64,000 nucleotides of DNA. Source: Ischnura elegans. Taxonomy: Eukaryota; Arthropoda; Insecta; Odonata; Coenagrionidae. The notes below the pieces were generated by a model. The model searched no databases. It saw only the letters and a program-made list of their open reading frames with translations, and was not told the origin of the DNA. Position numbers and translations under genes: made by a program. The stretch is from assembly GCF_921293095.1 (NCBI RefSeq), contig NC_060257.1, positions 59,184,968-59,248,967 on the forward strand. The letters run 5' to 3'. Shown here one piece after another: positions 1-42,879 of the stretch. The stretch's first letter is position 1; each line of letters begins with the position of its first letter.

Positions 1-399
1 CCTGAACCTGAAGGAATCTGGATATTTACTTCCTCGGAATATAAAATAATAGGTGAGAAAGTTAGTGCATGAATACAAATTGTGTAACGAGGTTAGATTT
101 CATTCAGCAGACCAATAGTTTTCAGAAATTTTATTACCCGACTAAGATGTTCAGGGTCGTCACGAAGCATATCGTTTAGTCCTCCAACAAGGTTCATCCT
201 ATACCGCAATATCCGATATAGGTCACAACAAAACGGATATTAAAACCCTTTCTCGTAAGGGTCAGCAGGAGAGTGTATTTCTTGCACGATCGGGTGCACG
301 GGTGAGAAGCCAGAGATGGCTTGTAGCGAGCTCCTAGAGTCAGGATAAAACCATAAAAATTTCCTCGTGTGTATCGCTCATCAGGTCTCCTCTGCAACT

Positions 400-1821
400 A
401 TGAGTTCCAATACGGAAGATGCTAGGAATCAGCTCCTCAGAGAGCTTTTAGGTATGCTGGCCCCTGCAGATCTGAGGCCAACACACAGGGGGGAGGTAGC
501 AGTTTTCGTGTTAACTTCATCCCAAGTTATCAGAGAGGAGGTTGAGAACTACTGTGGTGACCTAATGATTTCGTACTATGAGCGTGACATTGATGGTGTA
601 CCGAATGACTATATCACTGTGCATCCGACGGCAGACAACCAATGTTCGGGTGGCATTGTTTCTTTCAGAGGGAACCTAACGTGGGGCCAAACACAGGTTC
701 AGCGAAGCATCATGATCTTCGGAACAGAGCGCATGAAAGGGTTGTTGTCCCCTTCTTTTATCAACTATACAGTTAGGGCACAGTTCTATCCTCCTAACAT
801 GTATGCCACTGTTGAGAGTCCCATGGACCTAGCAACCACCTATGAACAGCTGGGCCAATCCAAGCACTTCGCGTATCAATTGGGGTTCAATGACCTTCTC
901 AGATTACTCCTGTCTAGGCAAATCCCAGGGGTTTCAAAGACCCTTAGTGTGCTCGTTTCTTTATTCCCTCATATCATCAGAGGGCTTGATAGGAAGATCC
1001 TCATGGGAGACGCTACAACATTCAGATCCAACTACCCTCCACAACCTGCAGAAATGAATGAAATGAGAGATGAATCAAAAAGAGCTATATTGATAGCAGG
1101 CACTGCAGCTGTAACATTAGGGTATGCATACCAGGTGGCGGAGAATCGGATGAACCAAGTGTGGACACGCACCGAGGCTGCCATGTCGTCCACTGACATC
1201 CAAGAAGTTAGTGAGGACATGTTTAAAGCTTCCTACGGAAAGCTAGTCGGGTTAGACTTCACTCCAGACCCACTGATCATTGAAACATTGGGTAGGGTGG
1301 TTGCTTACACCAAGGAGGGACGGTATGACGCAAGGGCCAAACTTACTGATCTAGCATCTCTTGATGAGATATGCAATCAGCATCCAATGACTGCTTGGGG
1401 GAAGGCTTTGTACGGACAGATGAGGCTGGTGTACCAAAAGCACCAGGCCTCCTCCATTATGTTTGGAATAACAGTGCTAAATGACCTCAGGCCATTGGTT
1501 GGGTCTATGGGGGCACTTTGGACATCAGAATTTGAGGCACTGGAGGTTCTAGCCGCACAAGTGGTGCAAGCGCCCTACATCGGCATGGTGGCCCAAATTC
1601 CTGAGGATCAGCAGATCCATAACTACGCTCGAATTATTGCAGTAGGAATTGAATTTCACAGGAAGAACCTTACAGATCAGGGCGCTGAGCGTGATTTTGC
1701 GAAATTCAACACAAAGGGAGTGACCGACCACATCGCGGACCCGGCTGACAAGGCAGCAACCATAGAGCTGGCAGCAGCCATACCAGCTAGAACTGTAACT
1801 GCCCTTGCAAATATTAGTTAG
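400..1821 (+). CDS. Viral nucleoprotein-like gene, array copy 1 (open)
   Basis: An uninterrupted 473-codon frame starts at the ATG at 400. A longer frame from 367 would need a GTG start and is not likely in a eukaryote. The protein is Ala/Leu rich, looks mostly helical, and has no signal peptide, membrane segment or catalytic motif that I can see. The length and character fit the nucleoprotein (RNA-binding, genome-encapsidating) of a negative-strand RNA virus of the Mononegavirales/Jingchuvirales type. That family call is from general resemblance, not a diagnostic motif. There is no intron. The gene lies between antisense LINE fragments, so it is an endogenous viral element rather than free virus. 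This copy has Met in the AENRMNQ segment and Arg in the GTERMKG segment. Being open shows recent origin or selection; it does not prove expression. Confidence 0.6.
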   Translation: MSSNTEDARNQLLRELLGMLAPADLRPTHRGEVAVFVLTSSQVIREEVENYCGDLMISYYERDIDGVPNDYITVHPTADNQCSGGIVSFRGNLTWGQTQVQRSIMIFGTERMKGLLSPSFINYTVRAQFYPPNMYATVESPMDLATTYEQLGQSKHFAYQLGFNDLLRLLLSRQIPGVSKTLSVLVSLFPHIIRGLDRKILMGDATTFRSNYPPQPAEMNEMRDESKRAILIAGTAAVTLGYAYQVAENRMNQVWTRTEAAMSSTDIQEVSEDMFKASYGKLVGLDFTPDPLIIETLGRVVAYTKEGRYDARAKLTDLASLDEICNQHPMTAWGKALYGQMRLVYQKHQASSIMFGITVLNDLRPLVGSMGALWTSEFEALEVLAAQVVQAPYIGMVAQIPEDQQIHNYARIIAVGIEFHRKNLTDQGAERDFAKFNTKGVTDHIADPADKAATIELAAAIPARTVTALANIS

Positions 1822-2312
1822 TTATTGTTATTTTTAGGGTGCGTCGACATCTTAGGTCATTTTGCACTGCATCATTCCATTCGTAAAAATTCATTTTGGG
1901 AGGATCACGTCATAAACCTGAACCTGAAGGAATCTGGATATTTACTTCCTCGGAATATAAAATAATAGGTGAGAAAGTTAGTGCATGAATACAAATTGTG
2001 TAACGAGGTTAGATCTCATTCAGCAGACCAACAGTTTTCAGAAATTTTATTACCCGACTAAGATGTTCAGGGTCGTCACGAAGCATATCGTTTAGTCCTC
2101 CAACAAGGTTCATCCTATATCGCAATATCCGATATAGGTCACAACAAAACGGATATTAAAACCCTTTCTCGTAAGGGTCAGCAGGAGAGTGTATTTCTTG
2201 CACGATCGGGTGCACGGGTGAGAAGCCAGAGATGGCTTGTAGCGAGCTCCTAGAGTCAGGATAAAACCATAAATTCCTCGTGTGTATCGCTCATCAGGTC
2301 TCCTCTGCAACT
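1822..2312 (-). repeat. Array spacer: chimera of LINE A 3' end and LINE B RNase H fragment (representative of eight)
   Basis: About 1830-2143 matches the 3' end and last codons of LINE A (15238-15552) almost exactly, in antisense. At GATATAGGTCACA it leaves LINE A and enters a piece matching LINE B RNase H (20633-20743, about 95% by eye). That piece ends at GAGTCAG near 2259 and is followed by non-LINE leader up to the gene's ATG. The same chimera lies at 1-399 (partial), 3735-4228, 5651-6144, 7567-8060, 9483-9977, 11400-11893 and 13316-13809. A 66-67 codon minus-strand frame in each spacer is only the relic of the RNase H region, not a gene. Confidence 0.9.
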
Positions 2313-3734
2313 ATGAGTTCCAATACCGAAGATGCTAGGAATCAGCTCCTCAGAGAGCTTATAGGTATGCTGGCCCCTGCAGATCTGAGGCCAACACACA
2401 GGGGGGAGGTAGCAGTTTTCGTGTTAACTTCATCCCAAGTTATCAGAGAGGAGGTTGAGAACTACTGTGGTGACCTAATGATTTCGTACTATGAGCGTGA
2501 CATTGATGGTGTACCGAATGACTATATCACTGTGCATCCGACGGCAGACAACCAATGTTCGGGTGGCATTGTTTCTTTCAGAGGGAACCTAACGTGGGGC
2601 CAAACACAGGTTCAGCGAAGCATCATGATCTTCGGAACAGAGCGCATGAAAGGGTTGTTGTCCCCTTCTTTTATCAACTATACAGTTAGGGCACAGTTCT
2701 ATCCTCCTAACATGTATGCCACTGTTGAGAGTCCCATGGACCTAGCAACCACCTATGAACAGCTGGGCCAATCCAAGCACTTCGCGTATCAATTGGGGTT
2801 CAATGACCTTCTCAGATTACTCCTGTCTAGGCAAATCCCAGGGGTTTCAAAGACCCTTAGTGTGCTCGTTTCTTTATTCCCTCATATCATCAGAGGGCTT
2901 GATAGGAAGATCCTCATGGGAGACGCTACAACATTCAGATCCAACTACCCTCCACAACCTGCAGAAATGAATGAAATGAGAGATGAATGAAAAAGAGTTA
3001 TATTGTTAGCAGGCACTGTATCTGTAACATTAGGGTATGCATACCAGGTGGCGGAGAATCGGGTGAACCAAGTGTGGACACGCACCGAGGCTGCCATGTC
3101 GTCCACTGACATCCAAGAAGTTAGTGAGGACATGTTTAAAGCTTCCTACGGAAAGCTAGTCGGGTTAGACTTCACTCCAGACCCACTGATCATTGAAACA
3201 TTGGGTAGGGTGGTTGCTTACACCAAGGAGGGACGGTATGACGCAAGGGCCAAACTTACTGATCTAGCATCTCTTGATGAGATATGCAATCAGCATCCAA
3301 TGACTGCTTGGGGGAAGGCTTTGTACGGACAGATGAGGCTGGTGTACCAAAAGCACCAGGCCTCCTCCATTATGTTTGGAATAACAGTGCTAAATGACCT
3401 CAGGCCATTGGTTGGGTCTATGGGGGCACTTTGGACATCAGAATTTGAGGCACTGGAGGTTCTAGCCGCACAAGTGGTGCAAGCGCCCTACATCGGCATG
3501 GTGGCCCAAATTCCTGAGGATCAGCAGATCCATAACTACGCTCGAATTATTGCAGTAGGAATTGAATTTCACAGGAAGAACCTTACAGATCAGGGCGCTG
3601 AGCGTGATTTTGCGAAATTCAACACAAAGGGAGTGACCGACCACATCGCGGACCCGGCTGACAAGGCAGCAACCATAGAGCTGGCAGCAGCCATACCAGC
3701 TAGAACTGTAACTGCCCTTGCAAATATTAGTTAG
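2313..3734 (+). pseudogene. Viral nucleoprotein-like gene, array copy 2 (TGA nonsense)
   Basis: Same gene as copy 1 but closed by a TGA at 2988-2990, where intact copies read TCA (Ser) after the MRDE segment. The open part is 225 codons from the ATG at 2313. The rest of the frame stays open to the normal stop at 3734, with no indel. A cluster of linked substitutions follows the stop (Val, Leu, Val and Ser where copy 1 has Ala, Ile, Ala and Ala), and the RELIG variant lies near the N terminus. The same cluster and TGA occur in copy 5, so the two are duplicates of one ancestor. The leader here lacks three bases (AAATTCC against AAAAATTTCC), which explains the 1913-bp spacing. Confidence 0.65.
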
Positions 3735-4228
3735 TTATTGTTATTTTTAGGGTGCGTCGACATCTTAGGTCATTTTGCACTGCATCATTCCATTCGTAAA
3801 AATTCATTTTGGGAGGATCACGTCATAAACCTGAACCTGAAGGAATCTGGATATTTACTTCCTCGGAATATAAAATAATAGGTGAGAAAGTTAGTGCATG
3901 AATACAAATTGTGTAACGAGGTTAGATTTCATTCAGCAGACCAATAGTTTTCAGAAATTTTATTACCCGACTAAGATGTTCAGGGTCGTCACGAAGCATA
4001 TCGTTTAGTCCTCCAACAAGGTTCATCCTATACCGCAATATCCGATATAGGTCACAACAAAACGGATATTAAAACCCTTTCTCGTAAGGGTCAGCAGGAG
4101 AGTGTATTTCTTGCACGATCGGGTGCACGGGTGAGAAGCCAGAGATGGCTTGTAGCGAGCTCCTAGAGTCAGGATAAAACCATAAAAATTTCCTCGTGTG
4201 TATCGCTCATCAGGTCTCCTCTGCAACT

Positions 4229-5650
4229 ATGAGTTCCAATACGGAAGATGCTAGGAATCAGCTCCTCAGAGAGCTTTTAGGTATGCTGGCCCCTGCAGAT
4301 CTGAGGCCAACACACAGGGGGGAGGTAGCAGTTTTCGTGTTAACTTCATCCCAAGTTATCAGAGAGGAGGTTGAGAACTACTGTGGTGACCTAATGATTT
4401 CGTACTATGAGCGTGACATTGATGGTGTACCGAATGACTATATCACTGTGCATCCGACGGCAGACAACCAATGTTCGGGTGGCATTGTTTCTTTCAGAGG
4501 GAACCTAACGTGGGGCCAAACACAGGTTCAGCGAAGCATCATGATCTTTGGAACAGAGGGCATGAAAGGGTTGTTGTCCCCTTCTTTTATCAACTATACA
4601 GTTAGGGCACAGTTCTATCCTCCTAACATGTATGCCACTGTTTAGAGTCCCATGGACCTAGCAACCACCTATGAACAGCTGGGCCAATCCAAGCACTTCG
4701 CGTATCAATTGGGGTTCAATGACCTTCTCAGATTACTCCTGTCTAGGCAAATCCCAGGGGTTTCAAAGACCCTTAGTGTGCTCGTTTCTTTATTCCCTCA
4801 TATCATCAGAGGGCTTGATAGGAAGATCCTCATGGGAGACGCTACAACATTCAGATCCAACTACCCTCCACAACCTGCAGAAATGAATGAAATGAGAGAT
4901 GAATCAAAAAGAGCTATATTGATAGCAGGCACTGCAGCTGTAACATTAGGGTATGCATACCAGGTGGCGGAGAATCGGATGAACCAAGTGTGGACACGCA
5001 CCGAGGCTGCCATGTCGTCCACTGACATCCAAGAAGTTAGTGAGGACATGTTTAAAGCTTCCTACGGAAAGCTAGTCGGGTTAGACTTCACTCCAGACCC
5101 ACTGATCATTGAAACATTGGGTAGGGTGGTTGCTTACACCAAGGAGGGACGGTATGACGCAAGGGCCAAACTTACTGATCTAGCATCTCTTGATGAGATA
5201 TGCAATCAGCATCCAATGACTGCTTGGGGGAAGGCTTTGTACGGACAGATGAGGCTGGTGTACCAAAAGCACCAGGCCTCCTCCATTATGTTTGGAATAA
5301 CAGTGCTAAATGACCTCAGGCCATTGGTTGGGTCTATGGGGGCACTTTGGACATCAGAATTTGAGGCACTGGAGGTTCTAGCCGCACAAGTGGTGCAAGC
5401 GCCCTACATCGGCATGGTGGCCCAAATTCCTGAGGATCAGCAGATCCATAACTACGCTCGAATTATTGCAGTAGGAATTGAATTTCACAGGAAAAACCTT
5501 ACAGATCAGGGCGCTGAGCGTGATTTTGCGAAATTCAACACAAAGGGAGTGACCGACCACATCGCGGACCCGGCTGACAAGGCAGCAACCATAGAGCTGG
5601 CAGCAGCCATACCAGCTAGAACTGTAACTGCCCTTGCAAATATTAGTTAG
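4229..5650 (+). pseudogene. Viral nucleoprotein-like gene, array copy 3 (TAG nonsense)
   Basis: A TAG at 4643-4645 replaces the GAG (Glu) codon that follows MYATV in intact copies, leaving 139 codons from the ATG at 4229. The frame then reopens at an internal Met (4652) and runs 332 codons to the normal stop. There is no indel. Copies 6 and 7 carry the same TAG and the same silent TTT in place of TTC a little upstream, so these three form one sequence type. The Gly in the GTEGMKG segment and Met in AENRMNQ are also shared. Confidence 0.65.
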
Positions 5651-6144
5651 TTATTGTTATTTTTAGGGTGCGTCGACATCTTAGGTCATTTTGCACTGCA
5701 TCATTCCATTCGTAAAAATTCATTTTGGGAGGATCACGTCATAAACCTGAACCTGAAGGAATCTGGATATTTACTTCCTCGGAATATAAAATAATAGGTG
5801 AGAAAGTTAGTGCATGAATACAAATTGTGTAACGAGGTTAGATCTCATTCAGCAGACCAACAGTTTTCAGAAATTTTATTACCCGACTAAGATGTTCAGG
5901 GTCGTCACGAAGCATATCGTTTAGTCCTCCAACAAGGTTCATCCTATACCGCAATATCCGATATAGGTCACAACAAAACGGATATTAAAACCCTTTCTCG
6001 TAAGGGTCAGCAGGAGAGTGTATTTCTTGCACGATCGGGTGCACGGGTGAGAAGCCAGAGATGGCTTGTAGCGAGCTCCTAGAGTCAGGATAAAACCATA
6101 AAAATTTCCTCGTGTGTATCGCTCATCAGGTCTCCTCTGCAACT

Positions 6145-7566
6145 ATGAGTTCCAATACGGAAGATGCTAGGAATCAGCTCCTCAGAGAGCTTTTAGGTAT
6201 GCTGGCCCCTGCAGATCTGAGGCCAACACACAGGGGGGAGGTAGCAGTTTTCGTGTTAACTTCATCCCAAGTTATCAGAGAGGAGGTTGAGAACTACTGT
6301 GGTGACCTAATGATTTCGTACTATGAGCGTGACATTGATGGTGTACCGAATGACTATATCACTGTGCATCCGACGGCAGACAACCAATGTTCGGGTGGCA
6401 TTGTTTCTTTCAGAGGGAACCTAACGTGGGGCCAAACACAGGTTCAGCGAAGCATCATGATCTTCGGAACAGAGCGCATGAAAGGGTTGTTGTCCCCTTC
6501 TTTTATCAACTATACAGTTAGGGCACAGTTCTATCCTCCTAACATGTATGCCACTGTTGAGAGTCCCATGGACCTAGCAACCACCTATGAACAGCTGGGC
6601 CAATCCAAGCACTTCGCGTATCAATTGGGGTTCAATGACCTTCTCAGATTACTCCTGTCTAGGCAAATCCCAGGGGTTTCAAAGACCCTTAGTGTGCTCG
6701 TTTCTTTATTCCCTCATATCATCAGAGGGCTTGATAGGAAGATCCTCATGGGAGACGCTACAACATTCAGATCCAACTACCCTCCACAACCTGCAGAAAT
6801 GAATGAAATGAGAGATGAATCAAAAAGAGCTATATTGATAGCAGGCACTGCATCTGTAACATTAGGGTATGCATACCAGGTGGCGGAGAATCGGGTGAAC
6901 CAAGTGTGGACACGCACCGAGGCTGCCATGTCGTCCACTGACATCCAAGAAGTTAGTGAGGACATGTTTAAAGCTTCCTACGGAAAGCTAGTCGGGTTAG
7001 ACTTCACTCCAGACCCACTGATCATTGAAACATTGGGTAGGGTGGTTGCTTACACCAAGGAGGGACGGTATGACGCAAGGGCCAAACTTACTGATCTAGC
7101 ATCTCTTGATGAGATATGCAATCAGCATCCAATGACTGCTTGGGGGAAGGCTTTGTACGGACAGATGAGGCTGGTGTACCAAAAGCACCAGGCCTCCTCC
7201 ATTATGTTTGGAATAACAGTGCTAAATGACCTCAGGCCATTGGTTGGGTCTATGGGGGCACTTTGGACATCAGAATTTGAGGCACTGGAGGTTCTAGCCG
7301 CACAAGTGGTGCAAGCGCCCTACATCGGCATGGTGGCCCAAATTCCTGAGGATCAGCAGATCCATAACTACGCTCGAATTATTGCAGTAGGAATTGAATT
7401 TCACAGGAAGAACCTTACAGATCAGGGCGCTGAGCGTGATTTTGCGAAATTCAACACAAAGGGAGTGACCGACCACATCGCGGACCCGGCTGACAAGGCA
7501 GCAACCATAGAGCTGGCAGCAGCCATACCAGCTAGAACTGTAACTGCCCTTGCAAATATTAGTTAG
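6145..7566 (+). CDS. Viral nucleoprotein-like gene, array copy 4 (open)
   Basis: An intact 473-codon frame from the ATG at 6145. It differs from copy 1 by having Ser in place of Ala in the GTASVTL segment and Val in place of Met in AENRVNQ. Those two residues are also seen in copies 2 and 5, so copy 4 looks intermediate between the copy 1 type and the broken copy 2/5 type. Identity and likely function are as for copy 1: putative negative-strand RNA virus nucleoprotein, endogenised. Spacers on both sides are the usual antisense LINE chimera. Confidence 0.6.
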   Translation: MSSNTEDARNQLLRELLGMLAPADLRPTHRGEVAVFVLTSSQVIREEVENYCGDLMISYYERDIDGVPNDYITVHPTADNQCSGGIVSFRGNLTWGQTQVQRSIMIFGTERMKGLLSPSFINYTVRAQFYPPNMYATVESPMDLATTYEQLGQSKHFAYQLGFNDLLRLLLSRQIPGVSKTLSVLVSLFPHIIRGLDRKILMGDATTFRSNYPPQPAEMNEMRDESKRAILIAGTASVTLGYAYQVAENRVNQVWTRTEAAMSSTDIQEVSEDMFKASYGKLVGLDFTPDPLIIETLGRVVAYTKEGRYDARAKLTDLASLDEICNQHPMTAWGKALYGQMRLVYQKHQASSIMFGITVLNDLRPLVGSMGALWTSEFEALEVLAAQVVQAPYIGMVAQIPEDQQIHNYARIIAVGIEFHRKNLTDQGAERDFAKFNTKGVTDHIADPADKAATIELAAAIPARTVTALANIS

Positions 7567-8060
7567 TTATTGTTATTTTTAGGGTGCGTCGACATCTTAG
7601 GTCATTTTGCACTGCATCATTCCATTCGTAAAAATTCATTTTGGGAGGATCACGTCATAAACCTGAACCTGAAGGAATCTGGATATTTACTTCCTCGGAA
7701 TATAAAATAATAGGTGAGAAAGTTAGTGCATGAATACAAATTGTGTAACGAGGTTAGATCTCATTCAGCAGACCAATAGTTTTCAGAAATTTTATTACCC
7801 GACTAAGATGTTCAGGGTCGTCACGAAGCATATCGTTTAGTCCTCCAACAAGGTTCATCCTATATCGCAATATCCGATATAGGTCACAACAAAACGGATA
7901 TTAAAACCCTTTCTCGTAAGGGTCAGCAGGAGAGTGTATTTCTTGCACGATCGGGTGCACGGGTGAGAAGCCAGAGATGGCTTGTAGCGAGCTCCTAGAG
8001 TCAGGATAAAACCATAAAAATTTCCTCGTGTGTATCGCTCATCAGGTCTCCTCTGCAACT

Positions 8061-9482
8061 ATGAGTTCCAATACCGAAGATGCTAGGAATCAGCTCCTCA
8101 GAGAGCTTATAGGTATGCTGGCCCCTGCAGATCTGAGGCCAACACACAGGGGGGAGGTAGCAGTTTTCGTGTTAACTTCATCCCAAGTTATCAGAGAGGA
8201 GGTTGAGAACTACTGTGGTGACCTAATGATTTCGTACTATGAGCGTGACATTGATGGTGTACAGAATGACTATATCACTGTGCATCCGACGGCAGACAAC
8301 CAATGTTCGGGTGGCATTGTTTCTTTCAGAGGGAACCTAACGTGGGGCCAAACACAGGTTCAGCGAAGCATCATGATCTTCGGAACAGAGGGCATGAAAG
8401 GGTTGTTGTCCCCTTCTTTTATCAACTATACAGTTAGGGCACAGTTCTATCCTCCTAACATGTATGCCACTGTTGAGAGTCCCATGGACCTAGCAACCAC
8501 CTATGAACAGCTGGGCCAATCCAAGCACTTCGCGTATCAATTGGGGTTCAATGACCTTCTCAGATTACTCCTGTCTAGGCAAATCCCAGGGGTTTCAAAG
8601 ACCCTTAGTGTGCTCGTTTCTTTATTCCCTCATATCATCAGAGGGCTTGATAGGAAGATCCTCATGGGAGACGCTACAACATTCAGATCCAACTACCCTC
8701 CACAACCTGCAGAAATGAATGAAATGAGAGATGAATGAAAAAGAGTTATATTGTTAGCAGGCACTGTATCTGTAACATTAGGGTATGCATACCAGGTGGC
8801 GGAGAATCGGGTGAACCAAGTGTGGACACGCACCGAGGCTGCCATGTCGTCCACTGACATCCAAGAAGTTAGTGAGGACATGTTTAAAGCTTCCTACGGA
8901 AAGCTAGTCGGGTTAGACTTCACTCCAGACCCACTGATCATTGAAACATTGGGTAGGGTGGTTGCTTACACCAAGGAGGGACGGTATGACGCAAGGGCCA
9001 AACTTACTGATCTAGCATCTCTTGATGAGATATGCAATCAGCATCCAATGACTGCTTGGGGGAAGGCTTTGTACGGACAGATGAGGCTGGTGTACCAAAA
9101 GCACCAGGCCTCCTCCATTATGTTTGGAATAACAGTGCTAAATGACCTCAGGCCATTGGTTGGGTCTATGGGGGCACTTTGGACATCAGAATTTGAGGCA
9201 CTGGAGGTTCTAGCCGCACAAGTGGTGCAAGCGCCCTACATCGGCATGGTGGCCCAAATTCCTGAGGATCAGCAGATCCATAACTACGCTCGAATTATTG
9301 CAGTAGGAATTGAATTTCACAGGAAGAACCTTACAGATCAGGGCGCTGAGCGTGATTTTGCGAAATTCAACACAAAGGGAGTGACCGACCACATCGCGGA
9401 CCCGGCTGACAAGGCAGCAACCATAGAGCTGGCAGCAGCCATACCAGCTAGAACTGTAACTGCCCTTGCAAATATTAGTTAG
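8061..9482 (+). pseudogene. Viral nucleoprotein-like gene, array copy 5 (TGA nonsense)
   Basis: It carries the same TGA as copy 2, here at 8736-8738, and the same linked substitutions after it. It differs from copy 2 by Gln for Pro in the IDGVQND segment and by Gly in GTEGMKG, and it keeps the full-length leader. The spacer that follows this copy (9483-9977) carries two variants otherwise seen only in the terminal long LINE A (GCACCGC for GCACTGC and AGTTGAGTGC for AGTTAGTGC), so that spacer is the array member nearest to the source element. Confidence 0.65.
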
Positions 9483-9977
9483 TTATTGTTATTTTTAGGG
9501 TGCGTCGACATCTTAGGTCATTTTGCACCGCATCATTCCATTCGTAAAAATTCATTTTGGGAGGATCACGTCATAAACCTGAACCTGAAGGAATCAGGAT
9601 ATTTACTTCCTCGGAATATAAAATAATAGGTGAGAAAGTTGAGTGCATGAATACAAATTGTGTAACGAGGTTAGATTTCATTCAGCAGACCAATAGTTTT
9701 CAGAAATTTTATTACCCGACTAAGATGTTCAGGGTCGTCACGAAGCATATCGTTTAGTCCTCCAACAAGGTTCATCCTATACCGCAATATCCGATATAGG
9801 TCACAACAAAACGGATATTAAAACCCTTTCTCGTAAGGGTCAGCAGGAGAGTGTATTTCTTGCACGATCGGGTGCACGGGTGAGAAGCCAGAGATGGCTT
9901 GTAGCGAGCTCCTAGAGTCAGGATAAAACCATAAAAATTTCCTCGTGTGTATCGCTCATCAGGTCTCCTCTGCAACT

Positions 9978-11399
9978 ATGAGTTCCAATACGGAAGATGC
10001 TAGGAATCAGCTCCTCAGAGAGCTTTTAGGTATGCTGGCCCCTGCAGATCTGAGGCCAACACACAGGGGGGAGGTAGCAGTTTTCGTGTTAACTTCATCC
10101 CAAGTTATCAGAGAGGAGGTTGAGAACTACTGTGGTGACCTAATGATTTCGTACTATGAGCGTGACATTGATGGTGTACCGAATGACTATATCACTGTGC
10201 ATCCGACGGCAGACAACCAATGTTCGGGTGGCATTGTTTCTTTCAGAGGGAACCTAACGTGGGGCCAAACACAGGTTCAGCGAAGCATCATGATCTTTGG
10301 AACAGAGGGCATGAAAGGGTTGTTGTCCCCTTCTTTTATCAACTATACAGTTAGGGCACAGTTCTATCCTCCTAACATGTATGCCACTGTTTAGAGTCCC
10401 ATGGACCTAGCAACCACCTATGAACAGCTGGGCCAATCCAAGCACTTCGCGTATCAATTGGGGTTCAATGACCTTCTCAGATTACTCCTGTCTAGGCAAA
10501 TCCCAGGGGTTTCAAAGACCCTTAGTGTGCTCGTTTCTTTATTCCCTCATATCATCAGAGGGCTTGATAGGAAGATCCTCATGGGAGACGCTACAACATT
10601 CAGATCCAACTACCCTCCACAACCTGCAGAAATGAATGAAATGAGAGATGAATCAAAAAGAGCTATATTGATAGCAGGCACTGCAGCTGTAACATTAGGG
10701 TATGCATACCAGGTGGCGGAGAATCGGATGAACCAAGTGTGGACACGCACCGAGGCTGCCATGTCGTCCACTGACATCCAAGAAGTTAGTGAGGACATGT
10801 TTAAAGCTTCCTACGGAAAGCTAGTCGGGTTAGACTTCACTCCAGACCCACTGATCATTGAAACATTGGGTAGGGTGGTTGCTTACACCAAGGAGGGACG
10901 GTATGACGCAAGGGCCAAACTTACTGATCTAGCATCTCTTGATGAGATATGCAATCAGCATCCAATGACTGCTTGGGGGAAGGCTTTGTACGGACAGATG
11001 AGGCTGGTGTACCAAAAGCACCAGGCCTCCTCCATTATGTTTGGAATAACAGTGCTAAATGACCTCAGGCCATTGGTTGGGTCTATGGGGGCACTTTGGA
11101 CATCAGAATTTGAGGCACTGGAGGTTCTAGCCGCACAAGTGGTGCAAGCGCCCTACATCGGCATGGTGGCCCAAATTCCTGAGGATCAGCAGATCCATAA
11201 CTACGCTCGAATTATTGCAGTAGGAATAGAATTTCACAGGAAGAACCTTACAGATCAGGGCGCTGAGCGTGATTTTGCGAAATTCAACACAAAGGGAGTG
11301 ACCGACCACATCGCGGACCCGGCTGACAAGGCAGCAACCATAGAGCTGGCAGCAGCCATACCAGCTAGAACTGTAACTGCCCTTGCAAATATTAGTTAG
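9978..11399 (+). pseudogene. Viral nucleoprotein-like gene, array copy 6 (TAG nonsense)
   Basis: Same type as copy 3: TAG at 10392-10394 after MYATV, with the frame reopening at 10401 and running to the normal stop. Near the 3' end GGAATAGAA replaces GGAATTGAA, a silent change shared only with copy 7. Copies 6 and 7 are therefore the closest adjacent pair in the array and look like the product of the latest single-unit duplication. Confidence 0.65.
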
Positions 11400-11893
11400 T
11401 TATTGTTATTTTTAGGGTGCGTCGACATCTTAGGTCATTTTGCACTGCATCATTCCATTCGTAAAAATTCATTTTGGGAGGATCACGTCATAAACCTGAA
11501 CCTGAAGGAATCTGGATATTTACTTCCTCGGAATATAAAATAATAGGTGAGAAAGTTAGTGCATGAATACAAATTGTGTAACGAGGTTAGATTTCATTCA
11601 GCAGACCAATAGTTTTCAGAAATTTTATTACCCGACTAAGATGTTCAGGGTCGTCACGAAGCATATCGTTTAGTCCTCCAACAAGGTTCATCCTATACCG
11701 CAATATCCGATATAGGTCACAACAAAACGGATATTAAAACCCTTTCTCGTAAGGGTCAGCAGGAGAGTGTATTTCTTGCACGATCGGGTGCACGGGTGAG
11801 AAGCCAGAGATGGCTTGTAGCGAGCTCCTAGAGTCAGGATAAAACCATAAAAATTTCCTCGTGTGTATCGCTCATCAGGTCTCCTCTGCAACT

Positions 11894-13315
11894 ATGAGTT
11901 CCAATACGGAAGATGCTAGGAATCAGCTCCTCAGAGAGCTTTTAGGTATGCTGGCCCCTGCAGATCTGAGGCCAACACACAGGGGGGAGGTAGCAGTTTT
12001 CGTGTTAACTTCATCCCAAGTTATCAGAGAGGAGGTTGAGAACTACTGTGGTGACCTAATGATTTCGTACTATGAGCGTGACATTGATGGTGTACCGAAT
12101 GACTATATCACTGTGCATCCGACGGCAGACAACCAATGTTCGGGTGGCATTGTTTCTTTCAGAGGGAACCTAACGTGGGGCCAAACACAGGTTCAGCGAA
12201 GCATCATGATCTTTGGAACAGAGGGCATGAAAGGGTTGTTGTCCCCTTCTTTTATCAACTATACAGTTAGGGCACAGTTCTATCCTCCTAACATGTATGC
12301 CACTGTTTAGAGTCCCATGGACCTAGCAACCACCTATGAACAGCTGGGCCAATCCAAGCACTTCGCGTATCAATTGGGGTTCAATGACCTTCTCAGATTA
12401 CTCCTGTCTAGGCAAATCCCAGGGGTTTCAAAGACCCTTAGTGTGCTCGTTTCTTTATTCCCTCATATCATCAGAGGGCTTGATAGGAAGATCCTCATGG
12501 GAGACGCTACAACATTCAGATCCAACTACCCTCCACAACCTGCAGAAATGAATGAAATGAGAGATGAATCAAAAAGAGCTATATTGATAGCAGGCACTGC
12601 AGCTGTAACATTAGGGTATGCATACCAGGTGGCGGAGAATCGGATGAACCAAGTGTGGACACGCACCGAGGCTGCCATGTCGTCCACTGACATCCAAGAA
12701 GTTAGTGAGGACATGTTTAAAGCTTCCTACGGAAAGCTAGTCGGGTTAGACTTCACTCCAGACCCACTGATCATTGAAACATTGGGTAGGGTGGTTGCTT
12801 ACACCAAGGAGGGACGGTATGACGCAAGGGCCAAACTTACTGATCTAGCATCTCTTGATGAGATATGCAATCAGCATCCAATGACTGCTTGGGGGAAGGC
12901 TTTGTACGGACAGATGAGGCTGGTGTACCAAAAGCACCAGGCCTCCTCCATTATGTTTGGAATAACAGTGCTAAATGACCTCAGGCCATTGGTTGGGTCT
13001 ATGGGGGCACTTTGGACATCAGAATTTGAGGCACTGGAGGTTCTAGCCGCACAAGTGGTGCAAGCGCCCTACATCGGCATGGTGGCCCAAATTCCTGAGG
13101 ATCAGCAGATCCATAACTACGCTCGAATTATTGCAGTAGGAATAGAATTTCACAGGAAGAACCTTACAGATCAGGGCGCTGAGCGTGATTTTGCGAAATT
13201 CAACACAAAGGGAGTGACCGACCACATCGCGGACCCGGCTGACAAGGCAGCAACCATAGAGCTGGCAGCAGCCATACCAGCTAGAACTGTAACTGCCCTT
13301 GCAAATATTAGTTAG
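11894..13315 (+). pseudogene. Viral nucleoprotein-like gene, array copy 7 (TAG nonsense)
   Basis: TAG at 12308-12310 as in copies 3 and 6, and the silent GGAATAGAA variant shared with copy 6. I see no other disabling change: the downstream frame is open from 12317 to 13315. The leader and spacer are the standard LINE A tail plus LINE B fragment. Confidence 0.65.
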
Positions 13316-13809
13316 TTATTGTTATTTTTAGGGTGCGTCGACATCTTAGGTCATTTTGCACTGCATCATTCCATTCGTAAAAATTCATTTTGGGAGGATC
13401 ACGTCATAAACCTGAACCTGAAGGAATCTGGATATTTACTTCCTCGGAATATAAAATAATAGGTGAGAAAGTTAGTGCATGAATACAAATTGTGTAACGA
13501 GGTTAGATTTCATTCAGCAGACCAATAGTTTTCAGAAATTTTATTACCCGACTAAGATGTTCAGGGTCGTCACGAAGCATATCGTTTAGTCCTCCAACAA
13601 GGTTCATCCTATACCGCAATATCCGATATAGGTCACAACAAAACGGATATTAAAACCCTTTCTCGTAAGGGTCAGCAGGAGAGTGTATTTCTTGCACGAT
13701 CGGGTGCACGGGTGAGAAGCCAGAGATGGCTTGTAGCGAGCTCCTAGAGTCAGGATAAAACCATAAAAATTTCCTCGTGTGTATCGCTCATCAGGTCTCC
13801 TCTGCAACT

Positions 13810-15231
13810 ATGAGTTCCAATACGGAAGATGCTAGGAATCAGCTCCTCAGAGAGCTTTTAGGTATGCTGGCCCCTGCAGATCTGAGGCCAACACACAGGG
13901 GGGAGGTAGCAGTTTTCGTGTTAACTTCATCCCAAGTTATCAGAGAGGAGGTTGAGAACTACTGTGGTGACCTAATGATTTCGTACTATGAGCGTGACAT
14001 TGATGGTGTACCGAATGACTATATCACTGTGCATCCGACGGCAGACAACCAATGTTCGGGTGGCATTGTTTCTTTCAGAGGGAACCTAACGTGGGGCCAA
14101 ACACAGGTTCAGCGAAGCATCATGATCTTCGGAACAGAGGGCATGAAAGGGTTGTTGTCCCCTTCTTTTATCAACTATACAGTTAGGGCACAGTTCTATC
14201 CTCCTAACATGTATGCCACTGTTGAGAGTCCCATGGACCTAGCAACCACCTATGAACAGCTGGGCCAATCCAAGCACTTCGCGTATCAATTGGGGTTCAA
14301 TGACCTTCTCAGATTACTCCTGTCTAGGCAAATCCCAGGGGTTTCAAAGACCCTTAGTGTGCTCGTTTCTTTATTCCCTCATATCATCAGAGGGCTTGAT
14401 AGGAAGATCCTCATGGGAGACGCTACAACATTCAGATCCAACTACCCTCCACAACCTGCAGAAATGAATGAAATGAGAGATGAATCAAAAAGAGCTATAT
14501 TGATAGCAGGCACTGCAGCTGTAACATTAGGGTATGCATACCAGGTGGCGGAGAATCGGGTGAACCAAGTGTGGACACGCACCGAGGCTGCCATGTCGTC
14601 CACTGACATCCAAGAAGTTAGTGAGGACATGTTTAAAGCTTCCTACGGAAAGCTAGTCGGGTTAGACTTCACTCCAGACCCACTGATCATTGAAACATTG
14701 GGTAGGGTGGTTGCTTACACCAAGGAGGGACGGTATGACGCAAGGGCCAAACTTACTGATCTAGCATCTCTTGATGAGATATGCAATCAGCATCCAATGA
14801 CTGCTTGGGGGAAGGCTTTGTACGGACAGATGAGGCTGGTGTACCAAAAGCACCAGGCCTCCTCCATTATGTTTGGAATAACAGTGCTAAATGACCTCAG
14901 GCCATTGGTTGGGTCTATGGGGGCACTTTGGACATCAGAATTTGAGGCACTGGAGGTTCTAGCCGCACAAGTGGTGCAAGCGCCCTACATCGGCATGGTG
15001 GCCCAAATTCCTGAGGATCAGCAGATCCATAACTACGCTCGAATTATTGCAGTAGGAATTGAATTTCACAGGAAGAACCTTACAGATCAGGGCGCTGAGC
15101 GTGATTTTGCGAAATTCAACACAAAGGGAGTGACCGACCACATCGCGGACCCGGCTGACAAGGCAGCAACCATAGAGCTGGCAGCAGCCATACCAGCTAG
15201 AACTGTAACTGCCCTTGCAAATATTAGTTAG
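13810..15231 (+). CDS. Viral nucleoprotein-like gene, array copy 8 (open, last unit)
   Basis: An intact 473-codon frame from the ATG at 13810. It combines features of other copies: Gly in GTEGMKG as in copies 3, 5, 6 and 7, Ala-Ala in GTAAVTL as in copy 1, and Val in AENRVNQ as in copy 4. This mosaic suggests exchange between copies. The stop codon is followed within about 10 bp by the LINE A terminus, which here continues into the long LINE A element (15238-19978) and so ends the array. Confidence 0.6.
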   Translation: MSSNTEDARNQLLRELLGMLAPADLRPTHRGEVAVFVLTSSQVIREEVENYCGDLMISYYERDIDGVPNDYITVHPTADNQCSGGIVSFRGNLTWGQTQVQRSIMIFGTEGMKGLLSPSFINYTVRAQFYPPNMYATVESPMDLATTYEQLGQSKHFAYQLGFNDLLRLLLSRQIPGVSKTLSVLVSLFPHIIRGLDRKILMGDATTFRSNYPPQPAEMNEMRDESKRAILIAGTAAVTLGYAYQVAENRVNQVWTRTEAAMSSTDIQEVSEDMFKASYGKLVGLDFTPDPLIIETLGRVVAYTKEGRYDARAKLTDLASLDEICNQHPMTAWGKALYGQMRLVYQKHQASSIMFGITVLNDLRPLVGSMGALWTSEFEALEVLAAQVVQAPYIGMVAQIPEDQQIHNYARIIAVGIEFHRKNLTDQGAERDFAKFNTKGVTDHIADPADKAATIELAAAIPARTVTALANIS

Positions 15232-15419
15232 TTATTGTTATTTTTAGGGTGCGTCGACATCTTAGGTCATTTTGCACCGCATCATTCCATTCGTAAAAAT
15301 TCATTTTGGGAGGATCACGTCATAAACCTGAACCTGAAGGAATCTGGATATTTTTTTCCTCGGAATATAAAATAATAGGTGAGAAAGTTGAGTGCATGAA
15401 TACAAATTGTGTAACGAGG

Positions 15420-18400
15420 TTAGATTTCATTCAGCAGACCAATAGTTTTCAGAAATTTTATTACCCGACTAAGACGTTCAGGGTCGTCACGAAGCATATC
15501 GTTTAGTCCTCCAACAAGGTTCATCCTATATCGCAATATCCGATATAGGTCACATTCCGTCAGGATATGTCTCACACTGATTATAGAGTCACATTCCTCA
15601 CAATGGGGCGGGATTTTCTCTTCTGTGAATAGATAGGAGTGAGTCACGGCGCAGTGCCCTATCCTCAGTCGTGTGATGACTACCTCCTCTCTCCGAGTAT
15701 TCCTGACCGAAGAGGCCCACTCTGACACGTCAGGTTTCACACTACGGAGTTTGTTAACCGTTTGGGAACACCAGCGTTCTTTCCACTGATTTAGAACGAT
15801 TCTCTTCCACGCTACCTGGAGATCACCTGCAGGTACTGGAAGTGTATTGTATTCTATATCGGATAGAGCCTCCTTCGCCGCTCTGTCTGCCTTTTCGTTT
15901 CCGCGTATTCCCATATGCCCTGGTATCCACATGAAACTGATTTTCACACCCTTCATTTGGAGGGAGTGGAGGGCAACATGAATTTCGTTTGCAATGGGAT
16001 GCGACGGAGAGAATCGGAGTATGGTTTGCAGAGAGCTCATTGAGTCAGTGCAGATGACATAAGGTGTGCCGTTTTGATGGATTCCCTGAAGGGCCATCCA
16101 CAGAGCAATCAATTCAGCCGTGAAAATACCACACAGAGGGCTGAGCTTCCGCTTGATGACACCGTGGTGATTTGAGACCACGGCACATGCACACGCCGAA
16201 TCAGTTTTCGACCCGTCCGTGTACACGGGAATTAACTCTGGATTGAGGGCTAAGAATTCGTTGAAGACCTATTTGAACTCGGCGGCCGAGGTGGAACTCT
16301 TGAGACGTCTGTGGAGTTGCGTATCGCATAACGGTCTCGTCTTCTCCCATGGAGGTAGTCTAGAAGTAGTAGCGGGGAATAGTACGGGAACGTTGAACGG
16401 ACATTCGTCTAAAAAGTTTCTTAGTCGTACGCTTACTGGTATGGTGGCTTTCCGTCGTCGGTTAAATATTTCTAAAAATCGTGGTTTGAAAATGACATTA
16501 TGCGCTGGGTGATTTCTCGTCGCTAAAATTTTTGCAGCGTAGTTGCACATTAGAAACTTCCGTCGCGTTTCGAGAGGTGGTTCTCCAGCTTCAGCACACA
16601 AACTCAGGATGGGTGACGTCCTGAAAGCCCCAGTTGCCAAGCGCAGGCCAGCATGGTGTACGGTTGATAGTGGTTTCAGGTAGAAGTCACGTCCAGACGA
16701 ATAGACTATGGACCCGTAATCTAATCTGGAGCGTACTAGTGCGCGGTACAATAAAATCATTGAGGAGCGATCCGCTCCCCAAGTCGTTCCAGTTTAAAAC
16801 CGTAAAATATTTAAAATCTTCAGACATCTGTCCCGCAAGTCTTTCGTGTGCTCACGCCAGTTTAGCCGTCGGTCAAATATCATCCCCAAGAAGCGATATG
16901 ACTCAACGAAAGGGAGTAAAGCTTTGCCCAGGCGAAGGTTTGGTGGGAAATGAATCCCATGCATACGGTGGAAATGCAGGCACTTAGTTTTCTCCGCAGA
17001 GAATCGAAATCCGTTTCGCTTGGACCACACGTTCAGCCTGTTGAGAGTAATTTGCAACTGCCGTCCTGCTGTTGCAACTCTAGACGAACGGCAAAATATT
17101 GCCAAGTCGTCTACAAATAGAGAACCCGTCACCGGTTCCTGAATACAGTCGACTACGTCGTCAATAGCAATGGCGAAGAGAGTCACGCTTAAAACTGAGC
17201 CCTGGGGTATGCCATTGTCAAGTGAATAAAATTGTGACAGATGCCTTCCTGTTCGTACCTTAAAAACTCGGTCGGTTAAAAAGTTTTGAATAAAAATCGG
17301 CAAGTTCCCCCTAAAACCCCACGCATGAAGCCTGTCTAAAATTCTCCTCCGCCAGACTCTGTCATACGCCTTTTCTAGGTCGAAAAAGACTGCTACGACA
17401 TGCTGTCGAAGGAGGAAGGCTTCCTGAATAAAATTTTCTGCACGGACGAGGTGATCTAATGTGGATCGACCTCGGCGGAAGCCACATTGAATGTTTGAGA
17501 GAAGCTTTTGCTTTTCCAGCCACCACATGAGTCTCCGATTTATCATTCTCTCCATGACTTTACATAGGCAGCTTGTGAGGGAAATGGGTCTGTAATTATT
17601 CGGGTCAGCTGTTTCTTTTCCTTGTTTAGGGATAGGTACCACTATTGACTCCCGCCATGACGATGGAAAATCCCTATCAACCCAAAGTTGGTTTAAAGTG
17701 AGCAGAACTTCGTCCAATGCCTTTTCCGGAATATTACGTAGGAATGCATTATGTACCTCGTTCAACCCTGGCGAGGTGCTCCTGGTGTCTTCGATGGCGG
17801 AGGTGAGTTCCCACAGGGTGAACGGGTCGTTGTACGGAGCATCTGTATCTCCTTCTAAGAAGGAAAGTCGAGAGGCTTCGTGTTGGCGTTTACGGTGGAG
17901 AAAGGAGCCGTGGAAGTTATCATCACTGCTTGTGTTGGCTAGGACCTGCCCAAAAGCTTCCGAAATGGCGGGCGCTGTTGTCAATAAATTGCCGTCAATT
18001 TTCAAGTAGGACACGTTGTTAGGCTGTCCCGAAGCTAAAATGGATTTGACCTTGCGCCATACCTGCGCAAGTGGCGTTTTATAGTTAACACTTGCAATAA
18101 ATTCCATCCATGAGATCCTTTTAGCCTCTTTCACCACACGACGAGCTTTGGATCGCAGGCGGCGGAAAGAGGCCAAGTTTGTTGCTGTGGGGTATTTATT
18201 AAATATTCGAAGAGCCTTCTTACGAATACTGATAGCTCTGGCACATTCATCGGTCCACCATGGTACCCGTGGTCGTTTTGCCTTACCTCGAGATCGCGGT
18301 AGACTTACATTTGCAGCTTATATGATGGCCGAAGTTAAGAGCTCGATGTTTTGTACAGCGTCCCGATTATTATCGTGCACGTATTTAAAACATTCTTTAA

Positions 18401-19121
18401 AATGGTCCCAGTCGGCTTTACGGGGAAGCCAGGTAGCCGGTCGATTAAAATTGCCATTTACACAGTGGTCTTTTGTAATTAAAAGCGGGAAGTGATCGCT
18501 CCCACATAGGTCGTCGTGCACGGCCACGCTAGTCTTCGTTATAAGACTGCTTGATAAAATACAAAGGTCTATGGAGGAGTACTCACCATTAAAACTGTTA
18601 AAACGTGTCTTTTCCTTGCTGTTCAATAAAATAAGGTTAGAATCTATAATAAAATTAGATAAAATTCTTCCTCGCCGGTTTTGCTGGGTCCTTGTGCTAC
18701 CCCACAAGGCGTCATGCGCGTTGAAATCTCCAAGCAATATAAAGGGCTTAGGTAGTTGGCGGGTAAGGTTCTCCAAGTTGCACCTTGTGACCGGCGCACC
18801 CTCCGGTAGGTAAACGTTACATAGCGTTATAGTCTCCGGAGCATGGATTGTCACCGCTACTGCTTGAAATGGAGTGGTCAAGTGCAATTGGGAGGTGTAA
18901 AGGGTCTCCCGAATAGCAATTGCCAATCCACCATGGGCTCTTTGACCACTGGTGTCGTCATGTCTAAAAACATTAAAACCCTTTAAAATTCCTTTATCTG
19001 TAGCTTTAAAATGCGTCTCTTGGAGACAAACACAACTAGGGTTAAAATCACGAATTAAAATGGTAAGCTCCTCCCTGTGTCGGTAAAAGCCATTACAGTT
19101 CCACTGTATGATAAAAGCCAT
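15420..19121 (-). pseudogene. LINE A ORF2: endonuclease / reverse transcriptase / RNase H, three nonsense codons
   Basis: One continuous frame of 1234 codons from the Met at 19121, broken only by in-frame stops at 18318-18320 (TAA), 16794-16796 (TAA) and 16269-16271 (TAG); there is no frameshift. In order: AP-type endonuclease (LQETHFK, LLGDFNAHD, GSDHFPLL), the conserved PWW linker, reverse transcriptase (NNYRPISL, VFFDLEKAYDRVW, GIPQGSVLS and the catalytic FVDDLAIF), RNase H (VYTDGSK, AELIAL, CTDSMSS, WIPGHMG, NEKADRAAKEA) and a C-terminal Cys/His knuckle (CEECDSIISVRHILTEC). Compared with LINE B it aligns throughout. The function would be target-primed reverse transcription of the element's own RNA; this copy cannot make it. 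Confidence 0.9.
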
Positions 19122-19181
19122 TAAAATAGGGAATAAGTTAAATAAATAAACTAAAACTCGATCACTAGGCTAGAGGGAGAC

Positions 19182-19978
19182 TTAACGCTTAAAGCGTCTC
19201 TTCTCCTTAGCCTTCGCCCGGTTTATCTCTGACTCCGAGATATCATCTTCATCCATGGATTCTGGTAGGCTATGTATAGCCTTACCAGATGGACCGGGGG
19301 ACTGGGACTTCCCACGCTTGTTTTGCGTGGTCCCGGTGGTGCCTGAGTTGGCGTTCTTCTTCGAAGAATCCAACACGGCGTCATTTTTTCCTGTCGGAAT
19401 GTTCTTTGTTACCGGTTTGGTAGGCTTATCCGGTTTGGCTTGGTTGTTGCTGTTGTCCGTTGCTTTGCTCTCTTTCACGTTCTTTTTGTTTCCTTGGCTT
19501 ACATTGTTTTTATTATTATTAACTGAGGTGTCTACTACTGCAGCGTACGATCTTGAAAAGGTAGGTGCCATTAACGTTCTGAATTTTTTTGCGGGCTTCA
19601 AAATAGGGTAACTTCTCCACAGTCTTGATTTCCATGATTTTCTTCTCTTCCATCATTTTTGGACAATCACGGGCGTACACTGGGTGTGTACCCTCGCAAT
19701 TGACGCAGGATGGATCTGAGGTGCAGGAATCGCCGTCATGTTTATCTTTGCCACAGCGTGGGCAGGTGGCCTTGCCCTGGCATCTTGTAGCAATGTGGCC
19801 GAAACGCTGGCATTGGAAGCATCTCATAGGACTTGGGATGAATGGTCGGAGTGACACAGATTCGTAGCCCACATATACCTTTTCGGGAAGTGTGTCGCGT
19901 GAGAATGTTAGGATTACGGATGTGCTATTTATCAGCTCGCCGTTCCTTTTAATTTTTAATCGGCGACAGTCTATTACG
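19182..19978 (-). pseudogene. LINE A ORF1 (nucleic-acid-binding protein), truncated and frameshifted
   Basis: It starts inside ORF1 at the segment RRLKIKRNGEL, which aligns with the middle of LINE B ORF1. Three Cys/His knuckles follow: CFQCQRFGHIATRC, CPRCGKDKHDGDSC and CVNCEGTHPVYARDC. The frame breaks in an A7 run (T7 on the plus strand, 19584-19590) and continues one base over as a Lys/Asn/Pro-rich tail ending KEKRRFKR. In I-type elements ORF1 binds the element RNA. The first 230 or so codons are missing, replaced by the tail of LINE B. Confidence 0.85.
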
Positions 19979-20138
19979 TAGTAGTAGTAGTAGTAGTATT
20001 TGGATTTAGGGTGCGTCGACGGCAAGGTCATTTTGCACCACTACTGTGCGATTTAATTACAAAAGTTATGTATAAAGTAATCTACTGCATCTGATGTCTT
20101 CGTTGAAAGTGTGCATAATTAGACTTTATTAAAAATGT
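19979..20138 (-). other. LINE B 3' UTR and (TAC)n tail
   Basis: After the ORF2 stop the minus strand has about 155 bp of AT-rich sequence. It then reads GGTGCAAAATGACC, six further bases, and CGACGCACCCTAAA, followed by a short spacer and a run of about seven TAC triplets. The same terminal block closes LINE A (about 15285-15238), where the tail is TAACAATAAC-like instead. A shared 3' terminus of this kind is what a LINE reverse transcriptase recognises on its template, so the two families could in principle use each other's machinery (inference). Confidence 0.75.
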
Positions 20139-23819: not shown

Positions 23820-23911
23820 AAAAAGGTTTAAGAAGGGTGAAAGATAAAAAACAGAAAAAAAGGATGTAAATATTTAAACTTGGAGCAGCATTAGCCCGGA
23901 AATCTGTGGAA

Positions 23912-28176: not shown

Positions 28177-28396
28177 AATATTTAAATCGCCTCTAAGACT
28201 AAAACACGGCTTTTGTGCTACAAAGGCGTTACTGAAATATGCGCAAATTCATTGTATGATTTATTTTATGTTCGATGGTTTATTAAGGGTTTCAATTTAT
28301 TTGTGTCGAAGGGTATAATTTTTTTGTGTGTTTCTTTTGTGAGGTAGTAAAAACAAATCCTAAACTTTTTTAACTCTCTTTGAGCCCAAAGGAAAA

Positions 28397-42474: not shown

Positions 42475-42486
42475 GTTGCTGCAATA

Positions 42487-42712: not shown

Positions 42713-42879
42713 TCGAACTTCGGTTCGTATGCGGGAGGGGAGTTTCATAGGAATGACGTTGTCACATTCCGTGTGGCGGCTGCATTTGGTATGCTCCAGT
42801 CGTCGGGGAGGGCAATTCATACGAACTAGGCGCTCGTGCGGTCGGGACTGGACGAGTTGGCATACGAACCAGGGAAAAC

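What the first reader, a model, noticed from the sequence alone, without database searches (positions are those of the whole stretch)
1..15231. Tandem amplification of an endogenous viral nucleoprotein-like gene
Eight head-to-tail units of about 1916 bp, more beyond the left edge, each carry a full-length 473-codon gene that looks like a negative-strand RNA virus nucleoprotein. Endogenous viral elements are usually single or few-copy and fragmentary; a homogeneous array with three open copies is unusual. It could be a dosage-amplified antiviral gene, a small-RNA source, or a recent satellite-like expansion.
Basis: partly seen in the sequence, partly recalled or inferred. Interest (0 to 1): 0.92.

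Follow-up and report, generated by a model that had tools for sequence, protein, structure and literature searches.

The report
Tandem array of a virus-like gene
A stretch of animal DNA holds at least eight near-identical copies of an orphan gene, probably taken from an RNA virus, joined to pieces of a jumping element; the array looks like a recent, satellite-like expansion rather than a preserved antiviral gene.

Summary
The array is real. Eight head-to-tail units of 1913-1917 bp fill 1-15326 and differ pairwise at 2-20 of 1917 columns. A 473-codon ORF is open in units 1, 4 and 8; units 2 and 5 share one stop codon, units 3, 6 and 7 another. The unit is a composite: an RNase H piece of one LINE, 56 bp of unassigned leader, the ORF, then the antisense 3' end of a second LINE, whose TAA-rich tail abuts the stop codon. 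The last unit runs directly into that LINE. Changes between units look neutral: 4 synonymous, 8 missense, 2 nonsense, against 3.6, 9.9 and 0.5 expected. SNP density is equal inside and outside the ORF. The nucleoprotein label could not be confirmed: no relative in ten sequence or family searches, and both structure models failed. One clue favours a negative-strand RNA virus: ORF CpG is 0.45, against 0.87-0.98 in five LINE frames; such viruses tend to have the lowest CpG of RNA viruses (PMC10714974). Best reading: a retro-copied, probably viral gene amplified by satellite-like exchange, without evident selection. The host genome could not be searched.

The parts
1..15326 (+). tandem array, eight units of 1913-1917 bp (unit starts 1, 1917, 3830, 5746, 7662, 9578, 11495, 13411)
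400..1821 (+). unit 1 ORF, 473 codons, open
2313..3734 (+). unit 2 copy of the ORF, nonsense at codon 226
4229..5650 (+). unit 3 copy, nonsense at codon 139
6145..7566 (+). unit 4 ORF, 473 codons, open
8061..9482 (+). unit 5 copy, nonsense at codon 226
9978..11399 (+). unit 6 copy, nonsense at codon 139
11894..13315 (+). unit 7 copy, nonsense at codon 139
13810..15231 (+). unit 8 ORF, 473 codons, open; last unit of the array
1..227 (-). LINE A 3' part (end of ORF2 and 3' UTR) within unit 1; the same piece recurs in every unit
   Evidence: matches 15327-15554 at 97.8%; for all eight units
230..343 (-). RNase H piece of a LINE B-like element, joined non-homologously to the LINE A piece at about 228-229: the tandem junction; recurs in every unit
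   Evidence: matches 20631-20746 at 94.8%; 24 of 24 residues identical to LINE B ORF2 1044-1067 in each of eight units; RNase H by the weak match to LINE A 15979-16048 (72.6%, E 0.014), which lies in the Pfam RNase_H stretch
344..399 (+). leader between the LINE piece and the ATG; presumed 5' UTR of the captured RNA
   Evidence: outside the array only one chance-level 13-bp match in the window (E 0.58); origin inferred
15232..19977 (-). LINE A: degenerate non-LTR retrotransposon (ORF2 frame interrupted by three stop codons), whose 3' end and TAA-rich tail abut the unit 8 stop codon; its last 323 bp (15232-15554) form part of the repeat unit
20005..25268 (-). LINE B: related element (ORF2 60% identical to that of LINE A; stop-to-stop frame of 1244 codons) with the same 3' end motif; relative of the RNase H piece in the unit

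Best explanation
An intronless gene of foreign, probably negative-strand RNA virus, origin was copied into DNA and came to lie between pieces of two related non-LTR retrotransposons (LINEs) in an arthropod-like genome. A segment made of a LINE RNase H piece, the gene, and the 3' end of LINE A was then duplicated head to tail through a non-homologous junction (shown: the junction; inferred: the event). The array grew and was partly homogenised by unequal exchange and gene conversion (shown: recombinant SNP patterns). Since amplification the ORF has evolved without detectable protein constraint: two nonsense mutations are shared among five of the eight units, most simply because the same exchange spread them. 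The array is thus a young satellite-like repeat whose monomer carries an open gene because it is young, not because the gene is kept. Any output, as RNA, small RNA or protein, is unknown.
For: Units and ORF status. Composite LINE anatomy; conserved LINE 3' end shared by LINE A and LINE B. Exchange: 26 of 171 SNP column pairs fail the four-gamete test, and five SNPs fall within 33 bp (63 of 20000 shuffles reach this), which suggests a conversion tract from a more diverged copy. Neutral pattern: 4 synonymous, 8 missense, 2 nonsense (sorted by hand), against 3.6, 9.9, 0.5 expected; SNP density 14/1422 in the ORF and 5/494 outside, with two indel events, both outside. Age: over the same 228 columns the edge LINE piece at 15327-15554 differs from the eight units at 5-7 columns (mean 5.4), while the units differ from one another at 0-5 (mean 1.9, 28 pairs). 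At 2.2% divergence a copy without selection escapes nonsense mutation with probability 0.58, so three open copies of eight need no selection. Foreign origin: ORF CpG 0.45-0.46 in the three open copies against 0.94 in the LINE part of unit 1 (1-343) and 0.87-0.98 in the five LINE reading frames tested, in line with ssRNA(-) viruses tending to the lowest CpG with little effect of host group (PMC10714974).
Against: No similarity to any viral protein was found in any search, so the viral step is inferred from composition, length and lack of introns. Three of 237 overlapping windows elsewhere in the sequence are as CpG-poor (lowest 0.40), and a MULE-type frame (0.57) and an unidentified ORF (0.63) are also poor, so CpG-poor sequence of other origin exists here. 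Eight units and 14 coding changes give little power to see weak constraint. One pair of units (2 and 6) differs at 5 of 228 columns in the LINE piece, as many as the edge does from most units, so the age ranking rests on means. No reads were available to exclude an assembly artefact.
Confidence: 0.6

Rival explanations
1. The ORF is a processed retrocopy of an ordinary host gene of unknown family, made by the LINE machinery, then amplified the same way. Its low CpG reflects germline gene-body methylation of the parent gene.
For: No viral similarity in any search. Gene-body methylation lowers CpG and raises TpG and CpA (recalled knowledge), as seen here (1.20 and 1.39-1.40). Another CpG-poor ORF of unknown kind lies at 28364-29149 (0.63).
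Against: No Pfam family at E up to 10, which I judge, without a test, less usual for a 473-aa cellular protein than for an RNA virus protein. CpG 0.45 is near the floor for this window (3 of 237 windows as low).
Confidence: 0.25
2. The array is a dosage-amplified, selected antiviral gene: several open copies make a nucleoprotein-like protein that interferes with a related virus.
For: Three of eight copies are open and near-identical. Co-opted nucleoprotein EVEs are known, e.g. in afrotherians, where they are tandemly duplicated and some are under negative selection (PMC4982594, start of abstract in the listing and passages).
Against: Five of eight copies are broken and the broken alleles are shared between units rather than purged. 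Missense and nonsense changes are about as frequent as expected by chance, and the ORF is as variable as its flanks.
Confidence: 0.07
3. The array is a source of small RNAs (piRNA-like), in which the viral part guides silencing of a virus and the antisense LINE parts guide silencing of LINEs; tandem repetition raises output.
For: The LINE pieces lie antisense to the ORF, and the neighbourhood holds several transposon remnants and a second EVE, partitivirus capsid-like. Satellite-repeat piRNA loci exist in mosquitoes (PMC7919454, passages). Broken ORFs do not matter for this function.
Against: No small RNA data. A plus-strand transcript would give antisense LINE but sense gene RNA: it could target the genomic strand of a negative-strand virus but not its mRNA; a minus-strand transcript would do the reverse for both.
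Confidence: 0.15
4. The array, or its copy number, is an assembly artefact.
For: Units of 1.9 kb at about 99-99.9% identity are hard to assemble; units 6 and 7 differ at only 2 columns.
Against: Units carry distinct, recombinant SNP combinations, and the array edge is a clean junction into single LINE A sequence that is on average more diverged.
Confidence: 0.08

Closest known systems
Endogenous bornavirus-like nucleoprotein elements (EBLN), including tandemly duplicated afrotherian copies (PMC4982594, passages)
   Same: An intronless nucleoprotein gene of a negative-strand RNA virus copied into a host genome with LINE machinery, later duplicated; here the viral and LINE-copying steps are inferred.
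   Different: EBLNs are recognisable by sequence and some are under negative selection; here no similarity was found, the copies number at least eight, and the pattern is neutral.
Chuvirus glycoprotein EVEs amplified with Pao retroelements in mosquitoes (PMC7642597, abstract and passages)
   Same: A negative-strand virus gene multiplied in the genome in company with a retroelement.
   Different: There, LTR elements contain the glycoprotein gene within their LTR boundaries and some look autonomous; here, broken LINE pieces are passive parts of a tandem unit. The word tandem does not occur in that paper's main text.
Post-insertional duplications of EVEs in crustaceans (PMC4573495, passages: seven such events, 210 EVEs)
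   Same: Copies share flanks, so they arose by DNA duplication after insertion.
   Different: The word tandem does not occur in that paper's main text.
Complex satellite DNA / composite tandem repeats seeded by transposon pieces (recalled as a kind; no paper read for it)
   Same: Head-to-tail kilobase units with recombinant variants and, on average, a more diverged edge.
   Different: The monomer contains a long open gene of non-transposon origin.

Membership tests
Negative-strand RNA virus nucleoprotein (Mononegavirales/Jingchuvirales) | Sequence similarity to known nucleoproteins | tested here: not met
   No Pfam family at E up to 10, no PDB sequence at E up to 10, none at E up to 10 among 5.8 billion proteins in three searches. 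Sensitivity to distant RNA virus proteins is low.
Negative-strand RNA virus nucleoprotein (Mononegavirales/Jingchuvirales) | Two-lobed, mainly helical RNA-binding fold (recalled) | tested here: inconclusive
   Single-sequence AlphaFold models with mean pLDDT 32.9 and 34.4; BFVD search of the first gave 0 matches at E up to 0.001.
Negative-strand RNA virus nucleoprotein (Mononegavirales/Jingchuvirales) | Nucleotide composition of ssRNA(-) viruses (low CpG); supportive, not defining | tested here: met
   CpG O/E 0.45-0.46 in three open copies; LINE part of unit 1 0.94. Benchmark: PMC10714974, abstract and passages.
Non-retroviral endogenous viral element | Embedded in host chromosomal DNA | tested here: met
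   Flanked on the right by LINE A, LINE B and further DNA with transposon remnants up to base 64000.
Non-retroviral endogenous viral element | Shown kinship with a virus | tested here: not met
   See the searches above; only composition points to a virus.
LINE-mediated retrocopy | Poly-A or LINE tail and target-site duplication | tested here: inconclusive
   The 3' side abuts the TAA-rich tail of LINE A in opposite orientation; left and right flanks derive from different LINE parts, so no target-site duplication can be read.
Satellite-like tandem repeat | Head-to-tail units with exchange between them | tested here: met
   Eight units; 26 of 171 SNP column pairs fail the four-gamete test.
Satellite-like tandem repeat | Long array or several loci in the genome | not testable with these tools
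   The window's own genome could not be searched: 12 of 12 calls unanswered.

The most novel reading that the evidence does not exclude
The unit records a template-switching event of LINE reverse transcription: on the LINE-sense strand the order is LINE A with its 3' tail, then the gene in the sense of viral genomic RNA, then a LINE B-like RNase H piece, as expected if one reverse transcriptase ran from a LINE fragment onto a negative-strand viral RNA and then onto the tail of a second LINE. The resulting chimera then became a satellite that may feed small RNAs against both virus and LINE. The last codons and the stop of the ORF may themselves come from the LINE tail.
Probability: 0.1. Interest if true: 0.72.

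Novelty: new variant of a known kind. Interest (0 to 1): 0.4.

Why it matters
If the gene is viral, this is an EVE that turned into a satellite-like repeat, a fate that I did not see in the listings of eight literature searches (at most 20 papers listed each, titles and starts of abstracts, plus passages of seven papers). It would show how a non-retroviral integration can multiply without selection, and would warn that open, multi-copy EVEs need not be domesticated genes.

Tried and rejected
Protein identity: Pfam at E up to 1 and 10, PDB sequences, PHROGs, three searches of 5.8 billion proteins (whole, residues 326-430, residues 84-200), IMG/VR, GTDB genomes and phage records: no relative in ten calls. 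In one search six stretches matched a short pattern but none encoded a relative.

Higher-order structure: units 1-3 and 4-6 look like a repeated trimer (open, stop 226, stop 139, twice), but 1104 of 20160 random orders fit as well or better, so this is only a hint. No further copy of the gene lies in 15232-64000 at E up to 1. Tandem Repeats Finder found nothing because its longest period is 500. No Rfam family at gathering score and no tRNA gene in the window.

At first I took the bases after the stop codon for a viral 3' UTR, and their match at 20005-20038 for part of LINE A ORF1. led me to read them as the conserved 3' end of this LINE family plus its tail; this rests on two elements, A and B.

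Full report
Observation. Eight head-to-tail units occupy 1-15326, 1913-1917 bp each. Across 1917 alignment columns 23 vary: 19 substitutions and 4 gap columns (two indel events). Pairs of units differ at 2-20 columns. The 473-codon ORF is open in units 1, 4 and 8; codon 226 is a stop in units 2 and 5, codon 139 in units 3, 6 and 7.

Anatomy of the unit. The 494 bp outside the ORF are mostly retrotransposon. In unit 1, bases 1-227 match the antisense 3' part of LINE A at 15327-15554 (97.8%), and bases 230-343 match LINE B at 20631-20746 (94.8%), a part that corresponds weakly (72.6%, E 0.014) to LINE A 15979-16048, inside its Pfam RNase_H stretch. All eight units hold the same 24-residue stretch, identical to LINE B ORF2 1044-1067. 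The two LINE pieces come from different parts of the element, so I read the join at about 228-229 as the non-homologous junction of the tandem duplication, with at most 4 bp (CACA) shared, by eye. Between the RNase H piece and the ATG lie 56 bp whose only other match in the window, outside the array, is a chance-level 13 bp (E 0.58). After the stop codon comes a TAA-rich stretch and then a motif that also ends LINE B at 20009-20038. On the LINE-sense strand both elements end in GGTGCAAAATGACC..GTCGACGCACCC followed by a simple tail, TAAAAATAACAATAACTAACTAATA for A and a TAC-rich one for B. So the tail of LINE A meets the gene at its stop codon; no viral 3' UTR is visible, and the last codons (N-I-S-stop) may derive from the LINE tail. 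The gene's true C terminus is therefore uncertain. The last unit runs on into the rest of LINE A, a degenerate element at 15232-19977 with RVT_1 and RNase H domains and three stop codons in its ORF2 frame. The I-like character of these LINEs (RNase H domain, TAA-type tail) is recalled knowledge, not a test.

How the array evolves. Of 171 pairs of SNP columns, 26 show all four combinations, which points to exchange between units. Five of the 19 SNP columns lie within 33 bp; 63 of 20000 random placements reach this, as if a tract had been converted from a more diverged copy not in the window. Over the same 228 columns of the LINE piece, the array edge at 15327-15554 differs from the eight units at 5-7 columns (mean 5.4), and the units differ from one another at 0-5 columns (mean 1.9 over 28 pairs): on average the edge is older than the last homogenisation, although one pair of units reaches 5. 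A trimer order is suggested but weak (1104 of 20160 orders as good).

Selection. Fourteen coding changes, sorted by hand, are 4 synonymous, 8 missense and 2 nonsense; random changes in this ORF would give 3.6, 9.9 and 0.5. SNP density is 0.0098 in the ORF and 0.0101 outside. With 2.2% divergence a copy free of constraint escapes nonsense with probability 0.58. The open copies need no selection. With so few changes weak constraint cannot be excluded.

Identity of the gene. No relative was found: Pfam, PDB, three searches of 5.8 billion proteins (8000 candidates scored; 15; 102), IMG/VR, GTDB genomes, phages, PHROGs. AlphaFold from one sequence gave mean pLDDT 32.9 and 34.4. In my judgement these failures say little, because animal RNA viruses are scarce in the collections at hand. 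Composition is the only positive clue. The ORF has CpG O/E 0.45-0.46, TpG 1.20 and CpA 1.39-1.40; CGN codes only 7-8 of 27-28 arginines. The LINE part of unit 1 has 0.94; five LINE frames 0.87-0.98; four of five DNA transposon frames 0.97-1.20 (one of them, at 50583, called mariner by eye only); a MULE-type frame 0.57; an unidentified ORF at 28364 0.63. Three of 237 overlapping windows of the same length elsewhere in the sequence are as low, the lowest 0.40. [quoted passage not shown] The partitivirus capsid-like ORF in this window, of dsRNA virus type, has 0.91, as that survey would predict. Gene-body methylation of a host parent gene is the main alternative.

Function. The satellite-like, passive reading is favoured. 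A protein function selected for dosage is disfavoured by the sharing of broken alleles among five units. A small-RNA function is compatible with broken ORFs and with the antisense LINE pieces, and satellite piRNA loci exist in mosquitoes (PMC7919454, passages), but nothing here tests it.

Literature. Tandem duplication of a viral nucleoprotein gene has been described for afrotherian EBLNs (PMC4982594, passages). Post-insertional duplication is known in crustaceans (PMC4573495, passages). Amplification of chuvirus genes with Pao elements is known in mosquitoes (PMC7642597, abstract and passages). Tick and horseshoe crab surveys (PMC10675110; PMC12282059; passages) hold no occurrence of the word tandem in the main text. 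Eight listings (one search found no paper) showed me no array of this kind; only listed titles and starts of abstracts were seen beyond the passages named, and papers outside the open library were not searched.

Limits. The host genome search was unanswered in 12 of 12 tries, so copy number elsewhere, the left flank and the empty site are unknown.

Noticed in passing
window 51670-52542 (+): Second endogenous viral element: a 290-codon open frame matching Partiti_capsid PF25666 (E 8.7e-56, profile positions 2-225 of 632) and a PDB chain named capsid protein, 8phh_B (E 2.7e-14), so a truncated partitivirus-like capsid gene. No relative in an IMG/VR scan.
   Followed up: partly
window 28364-29149 (+): CpG-poor open frame (0.63; Arg codons 14 AGR to 2 CGN) of unknown family; no Pfam family above its cut-off and only a chance-level PDB match (E 0.53). 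It runs into a simple-repeat stretch.
   Followed up: partly
window 20005-25268 (-): LINE B has a stop-to-stop ORF2 frame of 1244 codons and lies head to tail with degenerate LINE A, whose ORF1 match begins just after the LINE B tail; possibly a recently active family.
   Followed up: partly
window 1076-1108 and the same places in units 2 and 5: Five SNP columns in 33 bp, including the stop codon shared by units 2 and 5, suggest conversion from a diverged copy of the gene that is not in the window.
   Followed up: no
window 41962-56972: DNA transposon remnants: Tc3-type HTH, Mos1-type HTH, MULE, and a DDE_3 match just below its Pfam cut-off.
   Followed up: no
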